Source of the DNA: Streptosporangiales bacterium
GTDB lineage: Bacteria; Actinomycetota; Actinomycetes; Streptosporangiales; WHST01
Direction: 5' to 3'
DNA length: 64,000 nt
Assembly (NCBI GenBank): GCA_009379825.1
Contig: WHTA01000017.1
Span: 1 to 64,000, forward strand
In this document: one piece after another, positions 47,305-64,000 of the stretch
How positions within the stretch are numbered: the stretch's first letter is position 1
Layout: each line of letters starts with the position of its first letter
Notes under the pieces: model-generated
What the model saw: the letters and a program-made list of their open reading frames with translations, nothing else
Databases searched by the model: none
Told to the model about the DNA's origin: nothing
Translations under genes and position numbers: made by a program

Positions 47305-48078
47305 TCAGTGTTCGACGAGCGCGAGCACCCGCGCCGGGCTACCCGAGCCGCCGGCGATGCGCAACGGGCTGGCGACGATGACCGCGCCGTTCGGCGGCAG
47401 CTTGGCCAGGTTCTGCAGCTGGGTGAGGCCGTACTTGCCGGCCCCGTGCATCAGGTTGTGGCACGGGAACATCGGCTCGAACCCGCCGGCCGCGCCCGCG
47501 TCGGTGCCGACGGTCTCCGTGCCCAGCCCGATCACCGGGGCCTCCTCGGCCAACCAGCGCGCGCACTCCGCGGACAGGCCGGGGGTGTGCGGACCGCTCT
47601 CGTCGGCGTTGAGGAACTCCTCCTGCGAGCGCGACCTGGCGTCCCAGCCGGTGCGGAACAGCAGCCAGCCACCGGCGGGCAACGGCCCGTGCGCCTGCTC
47701 CCACGCCCTGACGTGGTCGATCTCGAGCAGGAAGTCGGGGTTCGCCGCGACCTCGGCGGAGAAGTCGAGCACCGCGGCGGGCGCGACGAGCTTGCCCGCC
47801 GGCACCGACGCGATGTCCTCACCACCCTTGCCGGAGATCCAGTGGTTCGGCGCGTCGAAGTGCGTGCCGGTGTGCTCACCGGTGCGGAAGTTGTTCCAGT
47901 ACCAGGCGGGGCCGCGGTCGTCGTAGCTGCTGATCTCCTGCAACTCGAACGTGGCGGTCTGGCCGAACTGCGGCGGCAGCTGGAGGATCGGGGTCTCACT
48001 GGTCAGCGGCGCAGTGAGGTCGACGACCTCGATCGACCCGGCTGACATCGCGCTGAGGAAGTCTTGCAGGACCGGCAT
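47305..48078 (-). CDS. Cyclase-family metal hydrolase (kynurenine formamidase-like fold)
   Basis: 257 residues with the family's metal motif HTGTHFDAPNHW near residues 62-73, VVDLTAPLTSETPIL at the start, and LLFRTGWDARS in the middle. The fold covers manganese- or zinc-dependent amidases and dehydratases, including bacterial arylformamidase (KynB) and isatin hydrolase. Because it is 4 kb outside the tryptophan cluster and linked to a thiamine enzyme and an antiporter, I do not call it kynB. ATG 48078 follows GGGAGACCAGC. Confidence 0.85.
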   Translation of the reverse strand: MPVLQDFLSAMSAGSIEVVDLTAPLTSETPILQLPPQFGQTATFELQEISSYDDRGPAWYWNNFRTGEHTGTHFDAPNHWISGKGGEDIASVPAGKLVAPAAVLDFSAEVAANPDFLLEIDHVRAWEQAHGPLPAGGWLLFRTGWDARSRSQEEFLNADESGPHTPGLSAECARWLAEEAPVIGLGTETVGTDAGAAGGFEPMFPCHNLMHGAGKYGLTQLQNLAKLPPNGAVIVASPLRIAGGSGSPARVLALVEH

Positions 48079-51513: not shown

Positions 51514-53880
51514 CTACGGCTGGGGGTGCCAGCGGGCGTGGTTGGTGGTCCGTTCGCCCTCGCGGATCAGTTCCAGGCGGGGCTTGGGGCCGTCGGCGCG
51601 GCCCGCCTGCGGCTTGCGCCTACCCGCCTGCCAGGGCAGCGGCCAGCGCACTCCTGGCCCGTCGTACTCCTGGTCGGCGGCGGCATGCAGAGTCCAGTTC
51701 GGGTCGTACAGGTGCACCCGGCCGAGCGCGCACAGGTCGGCGCGCCCGGCGAGAAGGATGGAGTTGACGTCGTCGTACGACGAGATCGCCCCGACGGCGA
51801 CCGTGGCGGTCCCCGTGCGGTTCCTTACGGCGTCGGAGAACGGCGTCTGGAACGACCGGCCGTACGCCGGCTGTTCCTCCGGCGTCACCTGCCCGGTCGA
51901 GACGTCGATCGCGTTCGCGCCAGCGTCGGCGAACGCCGACGCGATGAGCACCGCGTCGTCGACGTCGACCCCGCCCTCGACCCAGTCGGTGGCGGAGATG
52001 CGGACGGTGATCGGGCGGTCCTGCGGCCACACCTCGCGCATGGCAGCGAAGACCTCGAGCGGGAACCGCAGCCGGTTCTCCAGCGAGCCGCCGTACGCGT
52101 CGGTGCGCTCGTTGGTGACCGGCGAGATGAACGACGACAGCAGGTAACCGTGTGCGCAGTGCAGCTCGACCAGGTCGAAGCCGGCACGCTCGGCGCGGCG
52201 GGTCGCGGCCACGAACTGGTCCTTGATCTCGGCCAGCTCGCCGACCGTCAGCTCGCGTGGCACCTGGTTGACGCCCGGCTGGTACGGCAGCGGCGAAGGC
52301 GCGACGACCTCCCAGTTCCCGTCCGGCAGCGGGAGGTCGATGCCTTCCCACATCCGCCTGGTGGAGCCCTTGCGGCCGGAGTGACCGAGCTGCATGCCGA
52401 CCTTCGCCTGGGTGTGCGCGTGCACGAAGTCCGTGATCCTGCGGTACGCGGCGACGTGCTCGTCGTCGTACATGCCGCAGCAGGCCGGCGAGATCCTTCC
52501 CTCTCGGGAGACGCAGACCATCTCCGTCATCACCAGGCCCGCGCCGCCGAGCGCCTTACCCGTCAGGTGGGCGAAGTGGAAGTCGCTCGGCATGCCGTCG
52601 TCGGCCAGGTACATGTCCATCGCCGACACCACGATGCGGTTGGGCAGCTCCAGCTCGCGCAGCTTCATCGGCTGGAACATGGGCGGCCGCACGTCCCCGG
52701 GTGCCACGCCGCGGCGGCGTTCGTGGTCGGCGAACCAGTCGTCGACCCGCGCGACGAACTCCGGGTCGCGCACCCGCAGGTTGTCATACGTGACGCGCCG
52801 GCTGCGGGTCACGATGTTGAACGCGAACTGCATCGGCTCCTGGTCGACGTACTGGCCGATGTTCTCGAACCACTCCAGGCTGGCCTGTGCGGCGCGCTGG
52901 GTGGAGAGCACCACCGGCCGCCGTTCCTCCTCGTACGCGGTCAGCGCACTCTCCAGGTCCTTGTTCTCGTGCAGGCACGCGGCGAGCGCGAGACCGTCCT
53001 CCATCGCCAGCTTGGTGCCTGACCCGATGGAGAAGTGCGCGGTGTGCGCCGCGTCGCCGAGCAGCACGACGTTGTCGTGCCGCCAGCGCTCGTTGCGCAC
53101 GGTGGCGAAGCTGAGCCACTTGGAGTTGTTGGCCAGCACCTGGTAGCCGCCGAGCACGTCGGCGAAGAGCTCGCGCACCACGTCGATCGACGGCTGGTCC
53201 GACTCCCCCGGCTGCAGGTCGGTTGCGGCGATGCGGTCGAAGCCCGCCGCGTGCCACACGTCGTCGTGCATCTCCACGATGAACGTGCTGCCGTGCGCGT
53301 CGAACGGGTAGCCGTGGATCTGCATCACGCCGTACGGCGTCTCGCGGATGTAGAACTTGAACGCGTCGAACACCAGGTCGGTGCCGAGCCACATGTACCG
53401 GCAGTTGCGGACGTCGACCGTAGGCTGGAACGTGTCGGCGTACCGCTGCCTGGTCGGCGAGTTGACGCCGTCGCACGCGACGACCAGGTCGTGGCTGGCG
53501 GCCAGCTCCTCGACCGGCGGCGCGGGGGTGAGGAAGTGGACGGTCACGCCGAGCTCGCGGCAGCGCTCCTGCAGGATCTCCAGCAGGCGCTTGCGGCTGA
53601 TCGCCGCGAACCCGTGCCCACCGCTGGTGATGACCTCACCGCCGGCATGGATGTCGATGTCGTCCCAGCGCGCGAACTCCTTCTGCAACGCCGCGAACAC
53701 CGCCGGGTCGGCGTGCTCGATGCCGCCGAGCGTCTCGTCCGACAGCACTACGCCGAAGCCGAACGTGTCCTCGGCGGCGTTGCGCTCCCAGACCGTGATC
53801 TCGTGGCCGCGGTCGAGCTGCGCCGTGAGCGCGGCGAAGTAGAGCCCGCCGGGACCTCCCCCGATCACCGCGACCCGCAT
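51514..53880 (-). CDS. Bifunctional 2-aminobenzoyl-CoA (or salicylyl-CoA) monooxygenase/reductase
   Basis: 788 residues with two enzymes in one chain. Residues 1-375 are a class A flavin monooxygenase: IGGGPGGLYFA, CDGVNSPTRQ, VLLGDAAHTAHFSIGSGTKLAMEDGLALA. Residues about 400-770 are an old-yellow-enzyme barrel: FQPMKLRELELPNRIVVSAM, LGHSGRKGS, CAHGYLLSSFISPVTNERTDAYGGS. This fusion is known from aerobic anthranilate degradation (2-aminobenzoyl-CoA monooxygenase/reductase), where it hydroxylates and then reduces the ring to a non-aromatic CoA ester; close relatives act on salicylyl-CoA. The neighbouring ligase and kynureninase favour anthraniloyl-CoA. ATG 53880 follows AGGAGG. Confidence 0.88.
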   Translation of the reverse strand: MRVAVIGGGPGGLYFAALTAQLDRGHEITVWERNAAEDTFGFGVVLSDETLGGIEHADPAVFAALQKEFARWDDIDIHAGGEVITSGGHGFAAISRKRLLEILQERCRELGVTVHFLTPAPPVEELAASHDLVVACDGVNSPTRQRYADTFQPTVDVRNCRYMWLGTDLVFDAFKFYIRETPYGVMQIHGYPFDAHGSTFIVEMHDDVWHAAGFDRIAATDLQPGESDQPSIDVVRELFADVLGGYQVLANNSKWLSFATVRNERWRHDNVVLLGDAAHTAHFSIGSGTKLAMEDGLALAACLHENKDLESALTAYEEERRPVVLSTQRAAQASLEWFENIGQYVDQEPMQFAFNIVTRSRRVTYDNLRVRDPEFVARVDDWFADHERRRGVAPGDVRPPMFQPMKLRELELPNRIVVSAMDMYLADDGMPSDFHFAHLTGKALGGAGLVMTEMVCVSREGRISPACCGMYDDEHVAAYRRITDFVHAHTQAKVGMQLGHSGRKGSTRRMWEGIDLPLPDGNWEVVAPSPLPYQPGVNQVPRELTVGELAEIKDQFVAATRRAERAGFDLVELHCAHGYLLSSFISPVTNERTDAYGGSLENRLRFPLEVFAAMREVWPQDRPITVRISATDWVEGGVDVDDAVLIASAFADAGANAIDVSTGQVTPEEQPAYGRSFQTPFSDAVRNRTGTATVAVGAISSYDDVNSILLAGRADLCALGRVHLYDPNWTLHAAADQEYDGPGVRWPLPWQAGRRKPQAGRADGPKPRLELIREGERTTNHARWHPQP

Positions 53881-53912
53881 GGGCGCCTCCTGTCGCCACG
53901 ACACTTGCCGAG

Positions 53913-53940
53913 AGTATGTCGCACTAGCGACGACCGTCAA
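53913..53940 (-). promoter_or_regulatory. Promoter of the monooxygenase/reductase gene with palindrome in spacer
   Basis: On the minus strand TTGACG (53940-53935), 16 bp, CATACT (53918-53913). The spacer holds the palindrome GTCGCACTAGCGAC (53918-53931, plus strand), which may be a second operator. Confidence 0.55.
53928..53939. promoter_or_regulatory. Putative PaaX-like operator, site A
   Basis: CGACGACCGTCA, one of three copies of TGACGACMGTCA in region 3. It overlaps the -35 box of the leftward promoter and lies between the divergent monooxygenase and hydratase genes. Confidence 0.5.
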
Positions 53941-53996
53941 CAGAACGGTAGGCTCAGCCCGAGTGACATGCACTCTCGCCAAGGAGGTCGTCGACG

Positions 53997-54827
53997 ATGA
54001 GCCCGTTCCGCGGGTCCGCTCCGTTCACCGAGGAATGGCGGCACTTCAGGCTCGACGTGACGGACGCCGTCGCCACCGTCACGTTCGACCGGCCGGAGCG
54101 ACTCAACGCGCTGACCTTCGACACGTACGCGGACCTGCGCGACTTCCTCACCGAGGTGCCGCACCGCGACGACATCCGGGTGGTCGTGCTGCGCGGCGAG
54201 GGCCGTGCGTTCTGCTCCGGCGGCGACGTCGACGAGATCATCGGCGCGACGCTTGCGATGCGCCCGGACGAGCTGCTGGCGTTCACCCGGATGACCGGCG
54301 AGGTCGTACGGTGCCTGCGGGAGTGTCCGGTGCCCGTCATCAGCGCGGTGCACGGCACGGCGGCTGGCGCCGGCGCGGTGATCGCGCTGGCGAGCGACTT
54401 CCGGGTCGCTGCGCGCGCCGCGAAGTTCGCGTTCCTGTTCACGAAGGTAGGGCTTAGCGGCGGCGACATGGGCGCCGCGTACCTGCTGCCTCGCCTGGTG
54501 GGGCTTGGCCGCGCGACGCAGCTGCTGATGCTCGGCGACTCGCTGCCGGCCGAGGAGGCAGAGCGGTGGGGACTGGTGAGCCAACTCGTCGACGACGGGA
54601 CAGCGGTCGACGAGGCCGTGGCTACGCTCGCCGCGCGGCTGGCCGGCGGCCCCTGGCAGGCGTACGCGCAGACGAAGGCGCTGCTGTCGCGCGAGCAGGA
54701 CATGAGCCTGTCCGCTTCGCTCGAGCTCGAGGCCGTGACGCAGGCGCTGTTGATGAACGGTGCCGACTACCGCGAGTTCCACGCGGCGTTCACCGGCAAG
54801 CGCGACCCGAACTGGCAGGGACGTTGA
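53997..54827 (+). CDS. Enoyl-CoA hydratase family protein in the anthranilate cluster
   Basis: 276 residues, crotonase fold: VATVTFDRPERLNALTFDTY, LRGEGRAFCSGGDVDEIIG, AVHGTAAGAGAVIALASDFRVAA, then FLFTKVGLSGGDMGAAYLLPRLVG. It resembles the hydratase/ring-opening members found with benzoyl-CoA-type pathways. It probably hydrates or hydrolytically opens the reduced ring CoA ester made by the divergent monooxygenase/reductase. The stop overlaps the acyl-CoA dehydrogenase start (TGATG). ATG 53997 follows AAGGAGG. Confidence 0.88.
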   Translation: MSPFRGSAPFTEEWRHFRLDVTDAVATVTFDRPERLNALTFDTYADLRDFLTEVPHRDDIRVVVLRGEGRAFCSGGDVDEIIGATLAMRPDELLAFTRMTGEVVRCLRECPVPVISAVHGTAAGAGAVIALASDFRVAARAAKFAFLFTKVGLSGGDMGAAYLLPRLVGLGRATQLLMLGDSLPAEEAERWGLVSQLVDDGTAVDEAVATLAARLAGGPWQAYAQTKALLSREQDMSLSASLELEAVTQALLMNGADYREFHAAFTGKRDPNWQGR

Positions 54828-55963
54828 TGCCGTTCGACCTGACGCCGGAGCAGCACGAACTCGCCGCCTGGGTGCGCGCGGTCGCAGAAAGCACGCTGGC
54901 ACCGATCGCCGCACGTGGCCGCGACGGGCAGGTGAACAGGGAGCTGGTCCGCGCGATGGGCGACCTCGGCCTGCTGGCCCGGCTGTTCCCAGGCGTTGCG
55001 TACGGGACGCCGTCCGGACAGGCCGCCGCGGTCGACCTGTGCCTGCTGCGCGAGTCGCTCGCGTCGGTGAGCACGGAGGCCGAGACCGCGCTCGCCCTGC
55101 AGGGCCTCGGCACCTACCCGGTGCTCCAGGCCGGCAGCGCGGAGCTCGTACAGCAGTGGGTGCCTGCGGTCGCGCGTGGTGACGCCGTCGCCGCGTTCGC
55201 GCTGTCGGAGCCGGACGCCGGGTCCGACGCCGCCTCGCTGCACCTACAGGCCGTACCCGACGGCGCCGGCTGGCGGCTGCACGGCGAGAAGATCTGGATC
55301 TCCAACGCGCCCGAAGCCGACTTCTACACGGTGTTCGCGCGCACCACACCGGACGCGGGCGCGCGCGGCGTGAGCGCGTTCGTCGTACCCGCCGACCGCC
55401 CCGGCCTGGACGGCGAGCACCTGGACATGATCTCGCCGCACCCGATCGGCCGGCTCACCTTCGACGGTGTCGCCGTCGGCCGCGACGACCTGCTCGGCGA
55501 GCTCGACCGCGGCTTCCGGGTAGCGATGCGCACGCTCGACCTGTTCCGGCCGAGCGTCGGCGCGTTCGCCGTCGGCATGTACCGGGCCGCACTCGACGCC
55601 GCGGTGGCGCACGCCGGTTCCCGTGAGGCGTTCGGCGGCCCGCTGAAAGACCAGCAGACCGTGGCACACACCCTCGCCGAGATGGCCACCCGCACCGAAG
55701 CCGCACGCCTGCTGGTGTACCGCGCGGCCGCCGCGTACGACGCCGGCGAGGACCGGCTGGCCACCCACGCGGCGATGGCGAAGCTGTACGCCACGGAGAC
55801 CGCCCAGTACGTCGTGGACGCCGCCGTCCAGGTGCACGGCGCCCGGGCGCTGCGCCGTGGCCACCTGCTCGAGCACCTCTACCGCGAGGTGCGAGCGCCC
55901 CGCATCTACGAGGGCGCAACGGAGATCCAGCGTACGATCATCGCCCGCGACCTCTACCGCTGA
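54827..55963 (+). CDS. Acyl-CoA dehydrogenase in the anthranilate cluster
   Basis: 378 residues: FDLTPEQHELAAWVRAVAE, AAFALSEPDAGSDAASLHLQA, WRLHGEKIWISNAPEADFYTVFA, REAFGGPLKDQQTVAHTLAEMATR and IYEGATEIQRTIIARDL. All FAD- and CoA-binding parts are intact. It is coupled to the hydratase gene and convergent with the ligase. Expected role: alpha,beta-oxidation of a ring-derived acyl-CoA in the lower pathway; the exact substrate has not been shown for any such cluster to my knowledge. Confidence 0.9.
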   Translation: MPFDLTPEQHELAAWVRAVAESTLAPIAARGRDGQVNRELVRAMGDLGLLARLFPGVAYGTPSGQAAAVDLCLLRESLASVSTEAETALALQGLGTYPVLQAGSAELVQQWVPAVARGDAVAAFALSEPDAGSDAASLHLQAVPDGAGWRLHGEKIWISNAPEADFYTVFARTTPDAGARGVSAFVVPADRPGLDGEHLDMISPHPIGRLTFDGVAVGRDDLLGELDRGFRVAMRTLDLFRPSVGAFAVGMYRAALDAAVAHAGSREAFGGPLKDQQTVAHTLAEMATRTEAARLLVYRAAAAYDAGEDRLATHAAMAKLYATETAQYVVDAAVQVHGARALRRGHLLEHLYREVRAPRIYEGATEIQRTIIARDLYR

Positions 55964-55970
55964 AGCGGCG

Positions 55971-57590
55971 CTACCCCGCGGCGGGTTCCCGCAGGCGGAA
56001 GCGCTGCAGCTTGCCGGTCTCCGTACGGGGGAGGCTGTCCACGAACTCGATCGCGCGTGGGTACTTGTACGGGGCGATCTCCTGCTTGGCGAGGTCCTGC
56101 AGTTCCTTGACCATCGCCTCGCCGGCAGCCGCGCCCGCGCGGAGGACGACGAACGCCTTCACCAGCTGGCCGCGCTCCACGTCGGGCACGCCGACGACGG
56201 CGCACTCGGTGACGTCCGGGTGCGCGAGCAACGCTTCCTCCACCTCGGGTCCGGCGATGTTGTAGCCGGACGACACGATCATGTCGTCGCTGCGGGCCTG
56301 GTACCAGAAGTACCCGTCCTCGTCCTGTACGAAGGTGTCGCCGGTGATGTTCCAACCGTTCTCGACGTACACCGCCTGGCGCTCGTCGTTGAGGTACCGG
56401 CAGCCGGTGGGGCCCTGCACCGCCAGCCGGCCGACCGTGCCCGCCGGCACCGGCTTGCCGTCCGGGTCGACCACGACGGCCTGGTAGCCAGGCACCGGCA
56501 GGCCGGTCGATCCCGGCCGGATGTCGTCGTCGGCCGCCGAGATGAAGATGTGCAGCATCTCCGTGGCGCCGATGCCGTCGATGATCCGCACGCCCGTCGC
56601 GTCGTAGAACGCCTGCCAGGTGGTCGCCGGCAGGTGCTCGCCGGCGGACACGCACCTGCGCAACGTGGCCAGCCGCGCCAGCTCGCCGGACGCCAGCATC
56701 GCCCGGTACGCGGTGGGCGCGGTGAAGCACACCGTCACCTTCGACTCGGCGATGTGGTCGGCGAGCTGGTCGGGCGTCGCCCGCTCCACCAGCACCGTCG
56801 ACGCGCCGACCCGCAGCGGGAACACCACCAGGCCGCCGAGGCCGAAGGTGAAGGCCAGCGGCGGGGTGCCGATGAACACGTCGTCGGCGCGCGGCTCGAG
56901 CACGTGCTTGGAGAACGTGTCGGCGTTCACCAGCACGTCGCGGTGGAAGTGCATGGTGGCCTTGGGGCGTCCGGTCGTGCCCGAGGTGAACGCGAGCAGG
57001 GCGACGTCGTCGGCCGCCGTGTCGACCGGATCGAAGGTCCCGTCGTGCTGCCCGAGCCTGTTGGTGAGGTCGTCGGCGCCGTCGCCGCCGTACGCGACCA
57101 CGGGCGTCGCGCCGATGTCGGCAGCCCGCAGGCCGTCGAGGAACCGGCTGTCGCACAGCGCCAGCTCGAGGCGGGCGATCTCGTGGATGGCGCTCAGCTC
57201 CCGCGGCCGCAGCAGCGGCATCGTCGTCACCACGACCGCGCCCGCCTTGAGCACGCCGAACCAGCAGGCGACCAGCCACGGGTTGTTCGGCCCCCGCAAC
57301 AGCACCCGGTTCCCCGGCACGATGCCGCACTCGTCGACCAGCAGCCGGGCGATCCGGTTCGAGACGATGGCCAGCTCGCCGTAGCTCCACCATCGGTCAC
57401 CGGGCGCGGCGACGCACTGTCGCTGCGCACCGTGCTCGTCGATCGTGCGTTCCAGCAACTCGACCGCGCAGTTCAGCCGGTCCGGGTACTGCACGTCGGG
57501 TAGGTCGAAGAGGAACTCCGGCCAACTCTCCTGAGGCGGCAGGTTGTCCCGACAGAACGTGTCCAGGTGTGCCGAGGGCGTGAGCCGCAT
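55971..57590 (-). CDS. 2-aminobenzoate-CoA ligase-like (benzoate-CoA ligase family)
   Basis: 539 residues: an N-terminal motif LPDVQYPDRLNCAVELLE, the ATP loop FTSGTTGRPK near residue 189, PPLAFTFGLGGLVVFPL, GIGATEMLHIFIS (A5 region, of the benzoate/aminobenzoate-CoA ligase type), WNITGDTF, SSGYNIAGPEVEEAL and a final LPRTETGKLQRFRL with the catalytic lysine. The family activates benzoate, 2-aminobenzoate or 2-hydroxybenzoate to CoA esters. ATG 57590 follows AGGAGGGG and replaces a longer frame. Divergent from the PaaX-like regulator. Confidence 0.87.
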   Translation of the reverse strand: MRLTPSAHLDTFCRDNLPPQESWPEFLFDLPDVQYPDRLNCAVELLERTIDEHGAQRQCVAAPGDRWWSYGELAIVSNRIARLLVDECGIVPGNRVLLRGPNNPWLVACWFGVLKAGAVVVTTMPLLRPRELSAIHEIARLELALCDSRFLDGLRAADIGATPVVAYGGDGADDLTNRLGQHDGTFDPVDTAADDVALLAFTSGTTGRPKATMHFHRDVLVNADTFSKHVLEPRADDVFIGTPPLAFTFGLGGLVVFPLRVGASTVLVERATPDQLADHIAESKVTVCFTAPTAYRAMLASGELARLATLRRCVSAGEHLPATTWQAFYDATGVRIIDGIGATEMLHIFISAADDDIRPGSTGLPVPGYQAVVVDPDGKPVPAGTVGRLAVQGPTGCRYLNDERQAVYVENGWNITGDTFVQDEDGYFWYQARSDDMIVSSGYNIAGPEVEEALLAHPDVTECAVVGVPDVERGQLVKAFVVLRAGAAAGEAMVKELQDLAKQEIAPYKYPRAIEFVDSLPRTETGKLQRFRLREPAAG

Positions 57591-57622
57591 GAAGACCCCT
57601 CCTGCTTCGAGCCGCACCTCGT

Positions 57623-57650
57623 AGTATTCCTTTTTCGTGACGACAGTCAA
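57623..57650 (-). promoter_or_regulatory. Promoter of the CoA ligase gene
   Basis: On the minus strand TTGACT (57650-57645), 16 bp, AATACT (57628-57623), reading into the ligase gene. It is built like the monooxygenase promoter, with the same -35 overlap by the TGACGACMGTCA element. Confidence 0.55.
57638..57649. promoter_or_regulatory. Putative PaaX-like operator, site B
   Basis: TGACGACAGTCA, a palindrome with TGAC/GTCA arms, located between the divergent ligase and PaaX-like genes and overlapping the ligase -35. It is the best of the three copies. Confidence 0.55.
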
Positions 57651-57697
57651 GACACACGACATACCGATGACGTGGCGTACGCCGGCGGCCCGATATC

Positions 57698-58540
57698 GTG
57701 TTCGCCGTGACGGCCATCGATGACCTGCTGGAGACCCGCGCACTCCAGCCGCGGGCGCTCATCGTGACGATCTACGGCCTCTACGCCCGCGAGAAGGGCG
57801 GCTGGATCAGCATCGCGACCCTCATCCGGCTGCTGGCCGAGCTCGGCGTCGACGAGCCCGCCGTACGCTCGTCGATCTCCCGGCTGAAACGGCGCGAGAT
57901 TCTGGAAGCCCAGCGTCAGGACGGGCTGGCCGGCTACGGCCTCTCCGACCACGCCCGCGCGATCCTCGACGAGGGCGACCGCCGGATCTTCGAACGCACG
58001 AGGGCACGACTGGAGGACGGCTGGCTACTCGCGGTGTTCAGCGTGCCCGAGACGCAGCGACAGAAGCGCCATACCCTGCGGTCACGGCTCACCTGGCTCG
58101 GGTTCGGCACCGTAGGCGCGGGCGTCTGGATCGCGCCCGCACATCTCGACGAGGAGACCCGCGACGTCCTCGAGCGGTACGACCTGGCCCCGTACGTGAA
58201 CCTGTTCCGCGCCGACTACCTGGCGTTCGGCGACGTCCGCGAGCAGGTACGCCAGTGGTGGGACCTCGACCAGCTGCAGCTGCTGTACGACGACTTCCTC
58301 GCCGAGTACGCGGCGTTGCTGACCAAGTGGAAACGGCGCAGGTTCAAGGACCCGGCCGACGCGTTCGTCGACTACGTCAAGGCGCTCACCGTCTGGCGGC
58401 GGCTGCCGTTCCTCGACCCCGGCCTCGCACCCGAGGTGCTGCCGAGCAACTGGCACGGCACCCGCGCCGCGGATCTGTTCTTCGCGCTGCGCGCGCAGCT
58501 CGCCGAGCCGGCACACCGGTACGTCGACTCGCTGCGCTGA
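57698..58540 (+). CDS. PaaX-family transcriptional regulator
   Basis: 280 residues. The N-terminal winged helix reads ALIVTIYGLYAREKGGWISIATLIRLLAELGVDEPAVRSSISRLKRREIL (about 19-70); the middle PaaX domain has WLLAVFSVPETQRQKRHTLRSRLTWLGFGTVGAGVWIAP; the C-terminal domain has RRLPFLDPGLAPEVLPSNWHG, the hallmark end of PaaX proteins. PaaX represses phenylacetate genes and is released by the aryl-CoA intermediate. By position, this one should respond to anthraniloyl-CoA or a product. GTG 57698 (or 57707) is the start. Confidence 0.92.
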   Translation: MFAVTAIDDLLETRALQPRALIVTIYGLYAREKGGWISIATLIRLLAELGVDEPAVRSSISRLKRREILEAQRQDGLAGYGLSDHARAILDEGDRRIFERTRARLEDGWLLAVFSVPETQRQKRHTLRSRLTWLGFGTVGAGVWIAPAHLDEETRDVLERYDLAPYVNLFRADYLAFGDVREQVRQWWDLDQLQLLYDDFLAEYAALLTKWKRRRFKDPADAFVDYVKALTVWRRLPFLDPGLAPEVLPSNWHGTRAADLFFALRAQLAEPAHRYVDSLR

Positions 58541-58543
58541 CCT

Positions 58544-58936
58544 TCACAGCACGGCGAAGCCCTGCACCTCGACCATGGCCTCGACGTCCCACAGCCGGGT
58601 GACCCCGACCGCCGCCATGGCGGGGTAATCGCCACCCACCAGCCGGCGCCACACCCCACCGATCTCCTTACGGCGCGCGCGGTAGTCGTCGACGTCGACG
58701 ATGTACACGGTGAGGCTGGCGAGCTGGTCCGGCCGTCCGCCGGCCGCCCGCAACGCGATGATCAGGTTGCCGAGCGCCCGTTCGAACTGCGCGACCACGT
58801 CGTCGCCGACGATGACGCCGTTCTCGTCGAGCGCGGTCTGGCCGGCGAGGAACACCGTGCGCCCCTCCGCCACCACCGCGTGTGAGAAGCCCGTCGGCCG
58901 AGCCAGCTCACCCGGGTTGACCCGCTGCATGCTCAC
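58544..58936 (-). CDS. Rid-family (RidA/YjgF) protein
   Basis: 130 residues: PGELARPTGFSHAVVAEGRTVFLAGQTALDENGVIVG, a core QFERALGNLIIALRAAGGRPDQLASLTVYIVDV, and GDYPAMAAVGVTRLWDVEAMVEVQGFAVL. Rid proteins hydrolyse enamines/imines to ketone and ammonia. The Arg that defines deaminase-active RidA (PARSC) is replaced (PAMAAV), so this is another Rid subgroup and deamination is not assured. Placed here it could act on the 2-amino group of the ring-reduced product. GTG 58936 overlaps the SDR stop (GTGA); ATG 58930 is an alternative. Confidence 0.87.
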   Translation of the reverse strand: MSMQRVNPGELARPTGFSHAVVAEGRTVFLAGQTALDENGVIVGDDVVAQFERALGNLIIALRAAGGRPDQLASLTVYIVDVDDYRARRKEIGGVWRRLVGGDYPAMAAVGVTRLWDVEAMVEVQGFAVL

Positions 58937-61263: not shown

Positions 61264-62496
61264 CTAGGTGACTGCGGCGTCCGCGCTGCGGGCGTATAGG
61301 GGGTCGTGGTGGGCGCCGGTGGCGAGCACCTCCGCGAGGACGTCCATGGCGTCCCAGACGTCGCGGTAGCTCAGGTACAGCGGGGTGAGTCCGAGACGGA
61401 GCATGTCCGGCGCGCGGAAGTCGCCGACCACGCCGCGGGCGATGAGTGCCTGGCAGAGCTCGTACGCCTGCTCGTGCCGCAGCGACACCTGTGAGCCGCG
61501 GCGATGGTGCTCGCGCGGAGTCACCACCTCGATGCCGTACGGCCGCAGCGCGTCGGCCCTGGCGATCACCAGGTCGCCGAGCGCGAGCGACTTGGTCCGC
61601 AGGTCGGCGAGATCCACGCCGTCCCAGACGTCGAGCGCGGCGTCCAGGGCGAGCATCGACAGCAGCGGCGGCGTGCCGATGCGCGCCCGCTCGATGCCGT
61701 CGGCCGGCTCGTAGTGCTGGGCGAGCCCGAACGGGTCGGCTCGGCCGGTCCATCCGGTCAGCGGCAGGTCAGCGGCCTGCTGGTGCCGCGCCGCCAGGTA
61801 CAGCCACGCGGGCGCGCCCGGGCCGCCGTTGAGGTACTTGTAGCCGCACCCGACGGCGGCGTCGGCGCCCAGCGCGTCCAGGTCGAACGGCAGCGCACCG
61901 GCGACGTGGCAGAGGTCCCACACCATCAGCGCACCCGTGTCGTGCACCGCACGTGTGATCGCCTCGACGTCCCACAGCTCGCCGGTGCGGTAGTCGACGA
62001 CGCTCAGCGAGACGACCGCCGTGTCGTCGTCGAGCGCCAGCTCGGCCGGCGACACCCGCTGCACGTCCAGGTCGAGCATCCGCCCGACCGCGTCGGCGAG
62101 GTACTGGTCGGTCGGGAAGTTCGCGCCGTCGGTCACCAGCACCGTCCGCTCGGGACGCAGCCTGGCAGCCGCGACCAACGCCTGGAACAGCTGCACGCTG
62201 GTGGAGTCACCGCAGATCACCTGGCCGGGTGCGGCGCCTACGAGCGCGCCGATGCGGTCACCGACCCGCTGCGGCAACGTCCACCAACCGTTGTTGTTCC
62301 ACGAACCGATCAGGTCGGTGCCCCACTGCCGGTGTACGGCGTCGGCGACCGCGTCAGGTACGGCGGTGGGCAACGCGCCGAGCGAGTTGCCGTCCAGGTA
62401 CACGACACCGTCGGGCAGGGTGAACCTGTCACGGGCGAGCCGCAGCGGGTCGCGCGCGTCGAGCTCCTCGGCCTCGGCTCTGCTCTCACAGCACAC
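61264..62496 (-). CDS. kynU: Kynureninase
   Basis: About 410 residues of PLP fold type I. VYLDGNSLGALP near 32-43, STSVQLFQALVAA, VVDYRTGELWDVEAI, VWDLCHVAGALPFDLDALGADAAVGCGYKYLNGGPGAPAW with the PLP Lys at about 220, and GWTGRADPFGL are all kynureninase hallmarks. It splits kynurenine to anthranilate and alanine. GTG 62496 (MCCESRAEAEEL) overlaps the dioxygenase gene by 11 bp, so the two are coupled. No kynurenine 3-monooxygenase is present in the window, which points to anthranilate as the exit. Confidence 0.93.
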   Translation of the reverse strand: MCCESRAEAEELDARDPLRLARDRFTLPDGVVYLDGNSLGALPTAVPDAVADAVHRQWGTDLIGSWNNNGWWTLPQRVGDRIGALVGAAPGQVICGDSTSVQLFQALVAAARLRPERTVLVTDGANFPTDQYLADAVGRMLDLDVQRVSPAELALDDDTAVVSLSVVDYRTGELWDVEAITRAVHDTGALMVWDLCHVAGALPFDLDALGADAAVGCGYKYLNGGPGAPAWLYLAARHQQAADLPLTGWTGRADPFGLAQHYEPADGIERARIGTPPLLSMLALDAALDVWDGVDLADLRTKSLALGDLVIARADALRPYGIEVVTPREHHRRGSQVSLRHEQAYELCQALIARGVVGDFRAPDMLRLGLTPLYLSYRDVWDAMDVLAEVLATGAHHDPLYARSADAAVT

Positions 62497-63667
62497 TGCG
62501 CACCTGCCACAGCTCGGGGAATGCCGGTCGGAACAACGTCGATCGCAGGTAGTCGGCACCCGTCGACCCGCCGGTGCCGAGCTTGGTGCCGATGATCCGT
62601 TCCACCATCTTCACGTGCCGGTAGCGCCACTCCTGCACGCCCTCGTCGACGTCGACGAGGGCTTCGCAGAGCTCCGCGGCCGGGTTCCGCTCGTCGGCGT
62701 ACACTTCCGCGAGCACCTGCTGCACCTCGGCGTCCGGCTGCCACTCGGTGCCAGGGTCGCGGTCGAGCGCGTGCGCGGGTACGGCGAAGCCGGCGGTCGC
62801 CAGGTAGCGCAGCAGCGAGTCGAAGACCGACCTGCGGCCGGTGGCGGCGACCAGCCGCGCGTCCATGGTGGACGGCTTGAAGTCACGGCGGCCGAGCACC
62901 GCCTCGATCTCCCTGAACTGGTTGGACTGGAAACCGCTGGCCGAGCCGAGCTGCGGCCGGAACGACGCGAACTGGCGCGGTGTCATCGTCTCCAGCACGT
63001 CGAGCTGGCCAACGACGGTCTTGAGTATCTTCGCGATCCGCCTCGTGGTGTGCAGCGCGCCCGCGCTGTCACCGTCCTCCAGCCGGCGCTGCAGCAGCGC
63101 GGCCTCGTGCAGCACCTGGGTGAACCACAGCTCGTACACCTGGTGGATGATCACGAACAGCAGCTCGTCGTGGGCGTCGGTCAACGGGGTCTGGCACGAG
63201 AGCAGCTCGTCCAGGCGCAGGTAGCTGCCGTACGTGTGCTTCCCCGCCGGCGGCGCGACGCGGCGGTCGACGAGCGAGAGCGCCTCGGCGTGATGGTGGA
63301 CGATCCGCCAGCCGGTGTCGCCGTGGCGCAGCACGTCGGTGACCCGGAAGCACCGGTCGGCGATGGCCGGGTCACCGTAGTGCACCCGCAGCAGGTACTT
63401 CGCTACGGCGGCGTCGTCCCAGCCGTCCACCTTGATGCCCTCGGCGGCCACCGACTGCGGTGCCGGCCCGTCACCGGACCGCTCGGCGCGTGCGTCACGT
63501 AGCCGGTCGAGCTCGGCGAGCCCGGTCAGCAGCTGCTCGGCGTCGCTCTCCCAGACGGTGACGTCGGGGTCGAGCTGGCGGTCGAACGCCGGCCGGTCAC
63601 CGAGCGCCTGGTACAGGTCCTCGATGACCTGCACGACCTCGGGATGAGCGACGGTACCCCCGTCCAT
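62486..63667 (-). CDS. Tryptophan 2,3-dioxygenase with N-terminal NTF2/SnoaL-like domain
   Basis: 393 residues; usual bacterial enzymes have about 280. Residues 5-130 (HPEVVQVIEDLYQALGDR, DPDVTVWESDAEQLLTGLAEL, VLRHGDTGWRIVHHH) look like a SnoaL/NTF2-type cone domain. From about 145 the dioxygenase begins: YGSYLRLDELL, HDELLFVIIHQVYELWF (His175), and RHVKMVERIIGTKLGTGGSTGADYL with the haem-ligand His at 351. It oxidises tryptophan to N-formylkynurenine. ATG 63667 follows GAGGAGGT. There is no stop or frame change between the parts, so it is a true fusion. Confidence 0.9.
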   Translation of the reverse strand: MDGGTVAHPEVVQVIEDLYQALGDRPAFDRQLDPDVTVWESDAEQLLTGLAELDRLRDARAERSGDGPAPQSVAAEGIKVDGWDDAAVAKYLLRVHYGDPAIADRCFRVTDVLRHGDTGWRIVHHHAEALSLVDRRVAPPAGKHTYGSYLRLDELLSCQTPLTDAHDELLFVIIHQVYELWFTQVLHEAALLQRRLEDGDSAGALHTTRRIAKILKTVVGQLDVLETMTPRQFASFRPQLGSASGFQSNQFREIEAVLGRRDFKPSTMDARLVAATGRRSVFDSLLRYLATAGFAVPAHALDRDPGTEWQPDAEVQQVLAEVYADERNPAAELCEALVDVDEGVQEWRYRHVKMVERIIGTKLGTGGSTGADYLRSTLFRPAFPELWQVRSVL

Positions 63668-63678
63668 GGCATACCTCC

Positions 63679-64000
63679 TCAAGGTGACAACCGGGCGGCG
63701 AGCACCGCCGCGGTGTCCGCCCACAACTGGCTCTCCGGGGCGATCAGGGTGAAGTGGTCGCCATCTCCATGCAACGCTGTGACGGCGTCGCCGGCAACCT
63801 CTGCGGCTGCGGCGTACCTGCGGTTCATCTCGTTCAGATCCGGGCTGTCCGCACGAGCGGTGACCACCAGCTGGTGGGCGCCGACCGGCAGCCGCAGCAG
63901 CGGCGAGGCGGACGCGTAGGTGTCGGGCAGCTCGTCGCACGTACCGCCGAGCGCGTTCGCCACCGCACCCTCGCCGAGGTCGCGGCGCTGTGCCTCGTGC
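63679..64000 (-). CDS. Alpha/beta hydrolase, C-terminal part (putative kynurenine formamidase)
   Basis: The last about 106 residues of an alpha/beta hydrolase: AQRRDLGEGAVANALGG, SPLLRLPVGAHQLVVTARADSPDLNEMNRRYAAAAEVAG and GDGDHFTLIAPESQLW with the catalytic His in GDHF. The Asp of the triad would be the D of RADSPDL region. It runs past the right edge, so the Ser nucleophile is not seen. Placed 11 bp upstream of the dioxygenase gene, it is the expected N-formylkynurenine deformylase. The role is inferred from context. Confidence 0.75.
   Translation of the reverse strand, partial: HEAQRRDLGEGAVANALGGTCDELPDTYASASPLLRLPVGAHQLVVTARADSPDLNEMNRRYAAAAEVAGDAVTALHGDGDHFTLIAPESQLWADTAAVLAARLSP

What the first reader, a model, noticed from the sequence alone, without database searches (positions are those of the whole stretch)
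62486..63667. Tryptophan dioxygenase fused to an NTF2/SnoaL-like domain
The first about 130 residues form a SnoaL-type domain in the same open frame as an intact haem dioxygenase, giving 393 instead of about 280 residues. Both His residues of the dioxygenase are present. I do not know of a described tryptophan dioxygenase of this form. The extra domain might bind the product, shape oligomers, or help deformylation.
Basis: partly seen in the sequence, partly recalled or inferred. Interest (0 to 1): 0.65.

Follow-up and report, generated by a model that had tools for sequence, protein, structure and literature searches.

The report
Tryptophan dioxygenase with fused NTF2 domain
A bacterial tryptophan-degrading enzyme really is fused to a small-molecule-pocket (NTF2/SnoaL-type) domain that in related bacteria is a separate protein from the same catabolic operon, so the fusion flags an unstudied tryptophan or indole breakdown route.

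Summary
Window 62486-63667 (-) is one 393-aa frame with a strong ribosome-binding site. Residues 11-127 match SnoaL_3 (Pfam, above cut-off) and, predicted alone, fold as NTF2-like (pLDDT 89; Z about 15.7 to CaMKII hubs and bacterial NTF2-like proteins). Residues 143-392 are a tryptophan 2,3-dioxygenase (TDO) with the active-site residues kept. There is no in-frame start codon between residues 112 and 162, so TDO cannot start near codon 140. It is not an assembly accident: Pseudonocardia acaciae has the same fusion (385 aa, 75% identical), and in both genomes it is the only TDO. All other TDOs examined lack the domain; 40 of 347 genomes of the order carry it as a separate gene. That gene sits in a conserved catabolic operon (HyuA/HyuB, amidohydrolase, NTF2, TIGR04076, luciferase-like oxidoreductase, alpha/beta hydrolase), which in six of seven loci with the core order also carries TDO-family, kynureninase or kynurenine-monooxygenase-like genes. 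The fusion therefore joins two operon partners. The most likely role of the NTF2 domain is handling a pathway intermediate beside the TDO active site; ligand and reaction are unknown. A new domain architecture of a known enzyme, not a new kind of system.

The parts
62486..63667 (-). NTF2::TDO fusion gene, 393 aa
   Evidence: single open frame, SnoaL_3 plus Trp_dioxygenase, only TDO in the genome.
63278..63637 (-). N-terminal NTF2/SnoaL_3-like domain, residues about 11-130
   Evidence: Pfam; AlphaFold2 (pLDDT 89.2, pTM 0.83); fold matches.
63236..63277 (-). Linker, residues about 131-144, no in-frame start codon
   Evidence: nearest in-frame start codons are at residues 112 and 162; linker 10 of 15 identical to the P. 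acaciae fusion.
62489..63235 (-). Tryptophan 2,3-dioxygenase core, residues 145-393; H175, H351, R237, F171, Y146, Y149, S244, T365 kept
63674..63679 (-). AGGAGG ribosome-binding site before the ATG at 63667
   Evidence: Sequence (position to within a base or two).
61264..62496 (-). Kynureninase gene overlapping the end of the fusion gene by 11 bases
   Evidence: NCBIfam kynureninase 272 bits against a cut-off of 246; coordinates.
63679..64000 (-). 3' part of an upstream alpha/beta hydrolase gene (357 aa in all, continues outside the window); formamidase-like candidate
   Evidence: weak match to a solved kynurenine formamidase, 4e11, E 3e-4; better matches to esterases.

Best explanation
The gene encodes a genuine two-domain protein: an NTF2-like module descended from a stand-alone gene of a conserved catabolic operon, joined by a short linker to the N-terminus of an apparently intact TDO. 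SHOWN: the architecture, its presence in two genera, the stand-alone relatives, and the co-location of stand-alone NTF2 genes with TDO-family and kynurenine-pathway genes. INFERRED: the operon feeds a tryptophan- or indole-type compound into the kynurenine route (TDO, alpha/beta hydrolase, kynureninase, then anthranilate by a neighbouring 2-aminobenzoyl-CoA-type cluster), and the NTF2 pocket binds or converts a small intermediate of that route. Fusing it at the TDO N-terminus would place the pocket near the active site, because in TDO tetramers of known structure the N-terminal segment packs over the neighbouring subunit's active site (from general knowledge, not tested here). The ligand and any reaction of the NTF2 domain are unknown.
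For: Two-domain Pfam match and NTF2 fold. Fused homologue in P. acaciae; the two TDO cores are sisters (support 100/95), the two N-domains sisters with moderate support (91/74). Both genomes have only this TDO. Stand-alone homologues, mostly 40-56% identical, in 40 of 347 genomes of the order and in other families. These lie in the order HyuA-HyuB-amidohydrolase-NTF2-TIGR04076-LLM; in the window genome the same operon leads into NTF2::TDO and kynureninase, and the NTF2 slot between amidohydrolase and TIGR04076 is empty; in P. acaciae the fusion sits directly after the amidohydrolase. Of seven loci with NTF2-TIGR04076-LLM, five have a TDO-family gene and six have a TDO-family, kynureninase or monooxygenase-like gene within a few kb. 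NTF2 is also read in one frame with the amidohydrolase in two other genomes. All invariant N-domain residues (D81, R108, T110, W120, H124, H126) are kept in both fusions. dN/dS about 0.54 (N-domain) and 0.25 (TDO), both under 1. NTF2-fold precedent in catabolism: AtzH, a probable decarboxylating amidohydrolase of the cyanuric acid pathway (PMC6219798).
Against: No ligand, reaction or expression data. The N-domain evolves faster than the TDO core and the window copy has the longer branch (0.58 against 0.18), so constraint may be partly relaxed. The TDO-family proteins beside stand-alone NTF2 genes are a distant lineage that lacks the distal His, so they may not use the same substrate. DUF885-type operons carry the NTF2 gene without TDO, so NTF2 cannot depend on TDO everywhere. 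The full-length model did not resolve the N-domain, so domain placement is unknown.
Confidence: 0.55

Rival explanations
1. The NTF2 domain is an oligomerisation hub, as in CaMKII: NTF2 dimers link TDO tetramers into larger assemblies and it has no ligand role.
For: CaMKII association domains are the best sequence matches among solved structures (profile search E 5.6e-8) and tie for best fold matches (Z about 15.7).
Against: Other bacterial NTF2-like proteins score equally (3f7s Z 15.8). The conserved residues (R108, W120, H124, H126) are shared with stand-alone catabolic-operon proteins, which points to the pocket as much as to assembly. TDO of known structure forms tetramers without it (general knowledge).
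Confidence: 0.2
2. Passive fusion: neighbouring genes were joined by loss of a stop codon, and the domain is tolerated without function.
For: The N-domain has a higher dN/dS than the TDO core (0.54 against 0.25) and the window copy a long branch. Only two fused genes were found.
Against: The fusion has lasted through 18% divergence of the TDO core, in two genera; no stop or frameshift; 24 of 26 strongly conserved N-domain columns are kept in the window copy and 26 of 26 in P. acaciae; the only copy of the NTF2 gene found in the window genome is the fused one.
Confidence: 0.17
3. The NTF2 domain is an N-formylkynurenine deformylase or directly helps deformylation, making the protein a two-step enzyme.
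For: Position next to TDO and kynureninase; NTF2-fold AtzH is a probable amide-cleaving enzyme.
Against: An alpha/beta hydrolase gene, a better formamidase candidate, is immediately upstream and a PF04199 cyclase-family hydrolase lies at 47305-48078. Stand-alone NTF2 genes also occur in operons without TDO.
Confidence: 0.08

Closest known systems
Bacterial tryptophan 2,3-dioxygenase (Pfam PF03301; Xanthomonas 2nw7, Ralstonia 2nox)
   Same: Core fold, length and active-site residues; kynureninase next door.
   Different: Extra NTF2-like N-terminal domain; the Lys at 183 (K in 106 of 115 TDOs compared) is Thr/Ala in the two fusions; scores below the TIGR03036 equivalog cut-off (264 against 391 bits).
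SnoaL_3 / DUF4440 NTF2-like proteins (stand-alone gene of the Hyu-amidohydrolase-LLM operon)
   Same: 42-56% identity for the nearest, same conserved residues, same operon partners.
   Different: Here fused to TDO instead of separate.
CaMKII association (hub) domain
   Same: Fold and weak sequence similarity (about 24% identity).
   Different: No kinase, no evidence here of a 12-16-mer ring; below the Pfam cut-off.
AtzH (DUF3225, cyanuric acid catabolism, PMC6219798)
   Same: NTF2 fold serving an amidohydrolase-type catabolic operon.
   Different: Different family; fold match Z 13.8, 18% identity; AtzH's Tyr22/Arg46 not mapped here.
LD-carboxypeptidases with a C-terminal NTF2 domain (Bd1075, Csd6, Pgp2; PMC8938487)
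   Same: Enzyme fused to an NTF2-like domain that controls targeting or ligand contact.
   Different: Unrelated enzyme; domain at the other end.

Membership tests
Tryptophan 2,3-dioxygenase (PF03301) | Match to the family above the Pfam gathering score | tested here: met
   195.3 bits against 34.9; structure match to 2nox/2nw8.
Tryptophan 2,3-dioxygenase (PF03301) | Proximal (haem-ligand) His and distal His | tested here: met
   H351 and H175 aligned with Xanthomonas H240 and H55.
Tryptophan 2,3-dioxygenase (PF03301) | Substrate-binding residues (Xanthomonas F51, R117, S124, T254, Y24, Y27) | tested here: met
   F171, R237, S244, T365, Y146, Y149 invariant; Y113 is Phe, as in nearly all TDOs compared here. 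The list of site residues is from general knowledge.
Tryptophan 2,3-dioxygenase (PF03301) | Haem binding and conversion of L-Trp to N-formylkynurenine | not testable with these tools
   Needs protein.
TIGR03036 equivalog (trp_2_3_diox) | Score above the curated cut-off of 390.7 bits | tested here: not met
   264.1 bits; so filed under PF03301, not under this equivalog.
NTF2-like superfamily, SnoaL_3 (PF13474) | Match above the Pfam gathering score | tested here: met
   35.3 bits against 22; 40.7 in the P. acaciae fusion.
NTF2-like superfamily, SnoaL_3 (PF13474) | Cone-shaped alpha+beta fold | tested here: met
   AlphaFold2 pLDDT 89.2; helix-helix-strand-helix-four strands; Z up to 15.8 to NTF2-like structures.
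CaMKII association domain (PF08332) | Match above the Pfam gathering score | tested here: not met
   16.9 bits against 22.1.
CaMKII association domain (PF08332) | Assembly into a hub ring | not testable with these tools
   Needs protein.
AtzH / DUF3225 | Pfam DUF3225 match | tested here: not met
   Not among the Pfam matches at E up to 1; fold similarity only.

The most novel reading that the evidence does not exclude
The Hyu-amidohydrolase-NTF2-TIGR04076-LLM operon is an undescribed catabolic pathway for a tryptophan- or indole-derived compound that has recruited TDO-type haem enzymes at least twice (one lineage with a Thr/Ser distal residue, as separate genes; one with His, fused to NTF2), and the NTF2 domain is an enzyme of that pathway working directly on the TDO substrate or product.
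Probability: 0.25. Interest if true: 0.72.

Novelty: new variant of a known kind. Interest (0 to 1): 0.5.

Why it matters
TDO is a textbook enzyme usually described as a single-domain tetramer; no description of an NTF2-fused form was found in the papers searched. The fusion is a Rosetta-stone link: it ties an uncharacterised NTF2-like protein, and through it a conserved Hyu/amidohydrolase/LLM operon of actinobacteria, to tryptophan/kynurenine catabolism, which makes the function of that operon directly testable.

Tried and rejected
(1) Assembly or sequencing artefact: rejected by the 75% identical fusion in P. acaciae. (2) Separate translation of TDO near codon 140: rejected, no in-frame start codon between 112 and 162. 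(3) A third fusion in the MAG locus L089 (TDO 79%, kynureninase 74% identical): its contig starts inside the TDO gene; the other piece found in that MAG (L186) is a different, unfused TDO, so this stays open. (4) Coverage hints of N-terminal extension in L118 and L123: the genes are ordinary 263-264-aa TDOs. (5) Apparent extension with stops in G200: an artefact of alignment into upstream sequence; N-domain absent. (6) Plasmid collection: no fused gene listed; weak N-domain hits in Embleya only. (7) A mixed alignment of single-domain relatives misaligned the domains and was dropped. (8) Full-length AlphaFold2 run: TDO core good, N-domain not resolved because only two sequences cover it; no statement on domain orientation is made. 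(9) Literature searches for NTF2/SnoaL with TDO, hydantoinase with kynurenine and the like gave no description of this fusion or operon.

Full report
OBSERVATION. The minus-strand frame 62486-63667 encodes 393 residues from an ATG preceded by AGGAGG. Pfam finds SnoaL_3 at residues 11-127 (35.3 bits, cut-off 22) and Trp_dioxygenase at 143-392 (195 bits, cut-off 35). The frame has start codons at residues 112 and 162 and none between them, so a normal TDO cannot be started at the domain boundary. The gene is the only TDO in its genome, and its N-domain is the only one of its subfamily found there.

THE CORE. The TDO part aligns with Xanthomonas and Ralstonia TDO over its full length and the model matches them. 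Positions equivalent to Xanthomonas Y24, Y27, F51, H55, R117, L120, S124, H240 and T254 are all kept; Y113 is Phe, as in nearly all TDOs compared. One position is unusual: Lys183, K in 106 of 115 TDOs compared, is Thr here and Ala in the P. acaciae fusion.

THE N-DOMAIN. With an alignment of 30 relatives, AlphaFold2 predicts residues 1-132 at high confidence (mean pLDDT 89, pTM 0.83) with the NTF2-like order of elements. Best structural matches are bacterial NTF2-like proteins (3f7s, 2rgq) and CaMKII hubs, Z about 15.7 (Foldseek). CaMKII hubs are also the best sequence-profile hits among solved structures (E 5.6e-8), but the Pfam CaMKII_AD score is below its cut-off. In the full-length run the N-domain was not resolved, because only two rows cover it.

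A SECOND FUSION. A scan of 84,980 species genomes found one more full-length fused protein among the 80 best TDO relatives: Pseudonocardia acaciae DSM 45401, L063:10016-11173, 385 aa, with both Pfam domains. Identity is 77 of 119 in the N-domain, 10 of 15 in the linker and 203 of 249 in the core; dN/dS is about 0.54 and 0.25 in the two domains. The TDO cores are sisters (100/95) and the N-domains sisters with moderate support (91/74). It is the only TDO of that genome too.

WHERE THE DOMAIN COMES FROM. Among 347 genomes of the window's order (probably Streptosporangiales in the GTDB sense, because contigs of the sample are those of Actinomadura and Allonocardiopsis records) 40 others carry the domain as a separate protein of about 130 residues, 32-49% identical; only the window's genome has it fused to TDO. 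TDOs of the same order, found in 192 of 201 genomes sampled, align from about residue 112-146 on and the nearest ones show no N-domain. The separate genes lie in a conserved operon: dipeptide-type ABC transporter, HyuA, HyuB (one or two), prolidase-like amidohydrolase, NTF2, TIGR04076 protein, LLM-class (luciferase-like) oxidoreductase, alpha/beta hydrolase (families). A second version has a DUF885-type protein instead of HyuA/HyuB (this label is mine from sequence, not a Pfam result). The window's genome has the first version just upstream of the finding, in the order HyuA, HyuB, HyuB, amidohydrolase, TIGR04076, LLM, alpha/beta hydrolase, NTF2::TDO, kynureninase: the usual NTF2 slot is empty and the domain is at the front of TDO. 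In P. acaciae the order is HyuA, HyuB, amidohydrolase, NTF2::TDO, the fusion occupying the usual slot. The closest stand-alone N-domains in the tree come from the second type of operon, in an unnamed family (f21).

FUNCTIONAL LINK. Of 13 regions of up to 20 kb around separate NTF2 genes, five hold a TDO-family gene, three kynureninase and two a kynurenine-monooxygenase-like gene; of the seven with NTF2-TIGR04076-LLM, six hold at least one of these. TDO genes are one to a few per 8-11 Mb genome, so chance proximity is well under 1% per locus; three of the loci are from one genus, so they are not fully independent. These TDO-family proteins belong to a distant lineage whose distal His is Thr (four) or Ser (one), with the other active-site residues kept. 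TDO-type enzymes have thus joined this operon at least twice. NTF2 is also read in one frame with the amidohydrolase in two other genomes (in one, internal ATGs make it ambiguous). Fusion to two different partners of one operon, plus co-location, is strong Rosetta-stone evidence that NTF2, amidohydrolase and TDO serve one pathway.

PATHWAY IN THE WINDOW. Kynureninase overlaps the fusion gene by 11 bases. Downstream, 51.5-58.9 kb encodes a salicylyl-CoA 5-hydroxylase/2-aminobenzoyl-CoA-monooxygenase-like protein (1227 bits), a benzoate-CoA-ligase-family enzyme, PaaX-like regulator, Rid protein, enoyl-CoA hydratase and acyl-CoA dehydrogenase. A similar set flanks TDO in Actinophytocola and relatives. 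The expected flow is Trp (or a derivative) to N-formylkynurenine, kynurenine, anthranilate, then 2-aminobenzoyl-CoA degradation; this is inference from gene content.

MECHANISM. The N-domain keeps all invariant residues of its subfamily (D81, R108, T110, W120, H124, H126), so I think it still binds, and perhaps converts, a small molecule of the pathway. AtzH, an NTF2-fold protein in an amidohydrolase operon, is a probable decarboxylating amidohydrolase (PMC6219798); Bd1075 shows an NTF2 domain steering a fused enzyme (PMC8938487). Hub-type assembly and passive fusion remain possible; the faster evolution of the window's N-domain is the main point for the latter.

VERDICT. A real, conserved but rare new architecture of a known enzyme; the lasting interest lies in the operon it points to.

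Noticed in passing
L171:14650-15462, and TDO-family genes in L172-L175: TDO-family proteins beside stand-alone NTF2 genes have the distal His replaced by Thr (four) or Ser (one) and the Lys eight residues on replaced by Gly, other active-site residues kept: an unusual, perhaps neofunctionalised TDO lineage.
   Followed up: partly
L179:8291-9883 and L177:11019-12677: Amidohydrolase and NTF2 domain are read in one open frame (530 and 552 aa); in L177 internal ATGs could still start a separate NTF2 protein.
   Followed up: partly
window 51514-58930: 2-aminobenzoyl-CoA-type anthranilate degradation cluster (monooxygenase/reductase-like, CoA ligase, PaaX-like regulator, Rid, enoyl-CoA hydratase, acyl-CoA dehydrogenase) beside the kynurenine genes.
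   Followed up: partly
L089:1-1840 (MAG RYN_117): Truncated TDO (79% identical) overlapping a kynureninase 74% identical to the window's: a probable third relative whose N-terminus is not assembled.
   Followed up: partly
L047:5680-6753 (window 63679-64000 and beyond): The alpha/beta hydrolase upstream of the fusion has an N-terminal stretch of about 110 residues without a Pfam match.
   Followed up: no
window 47305-48078: PF04199 cyclase-family hydrolase (family of bacterial kynurenine formamidase and isatin hydrolase) next to a ThDP enzyme and a transporter-like gene.
   Followed up: no
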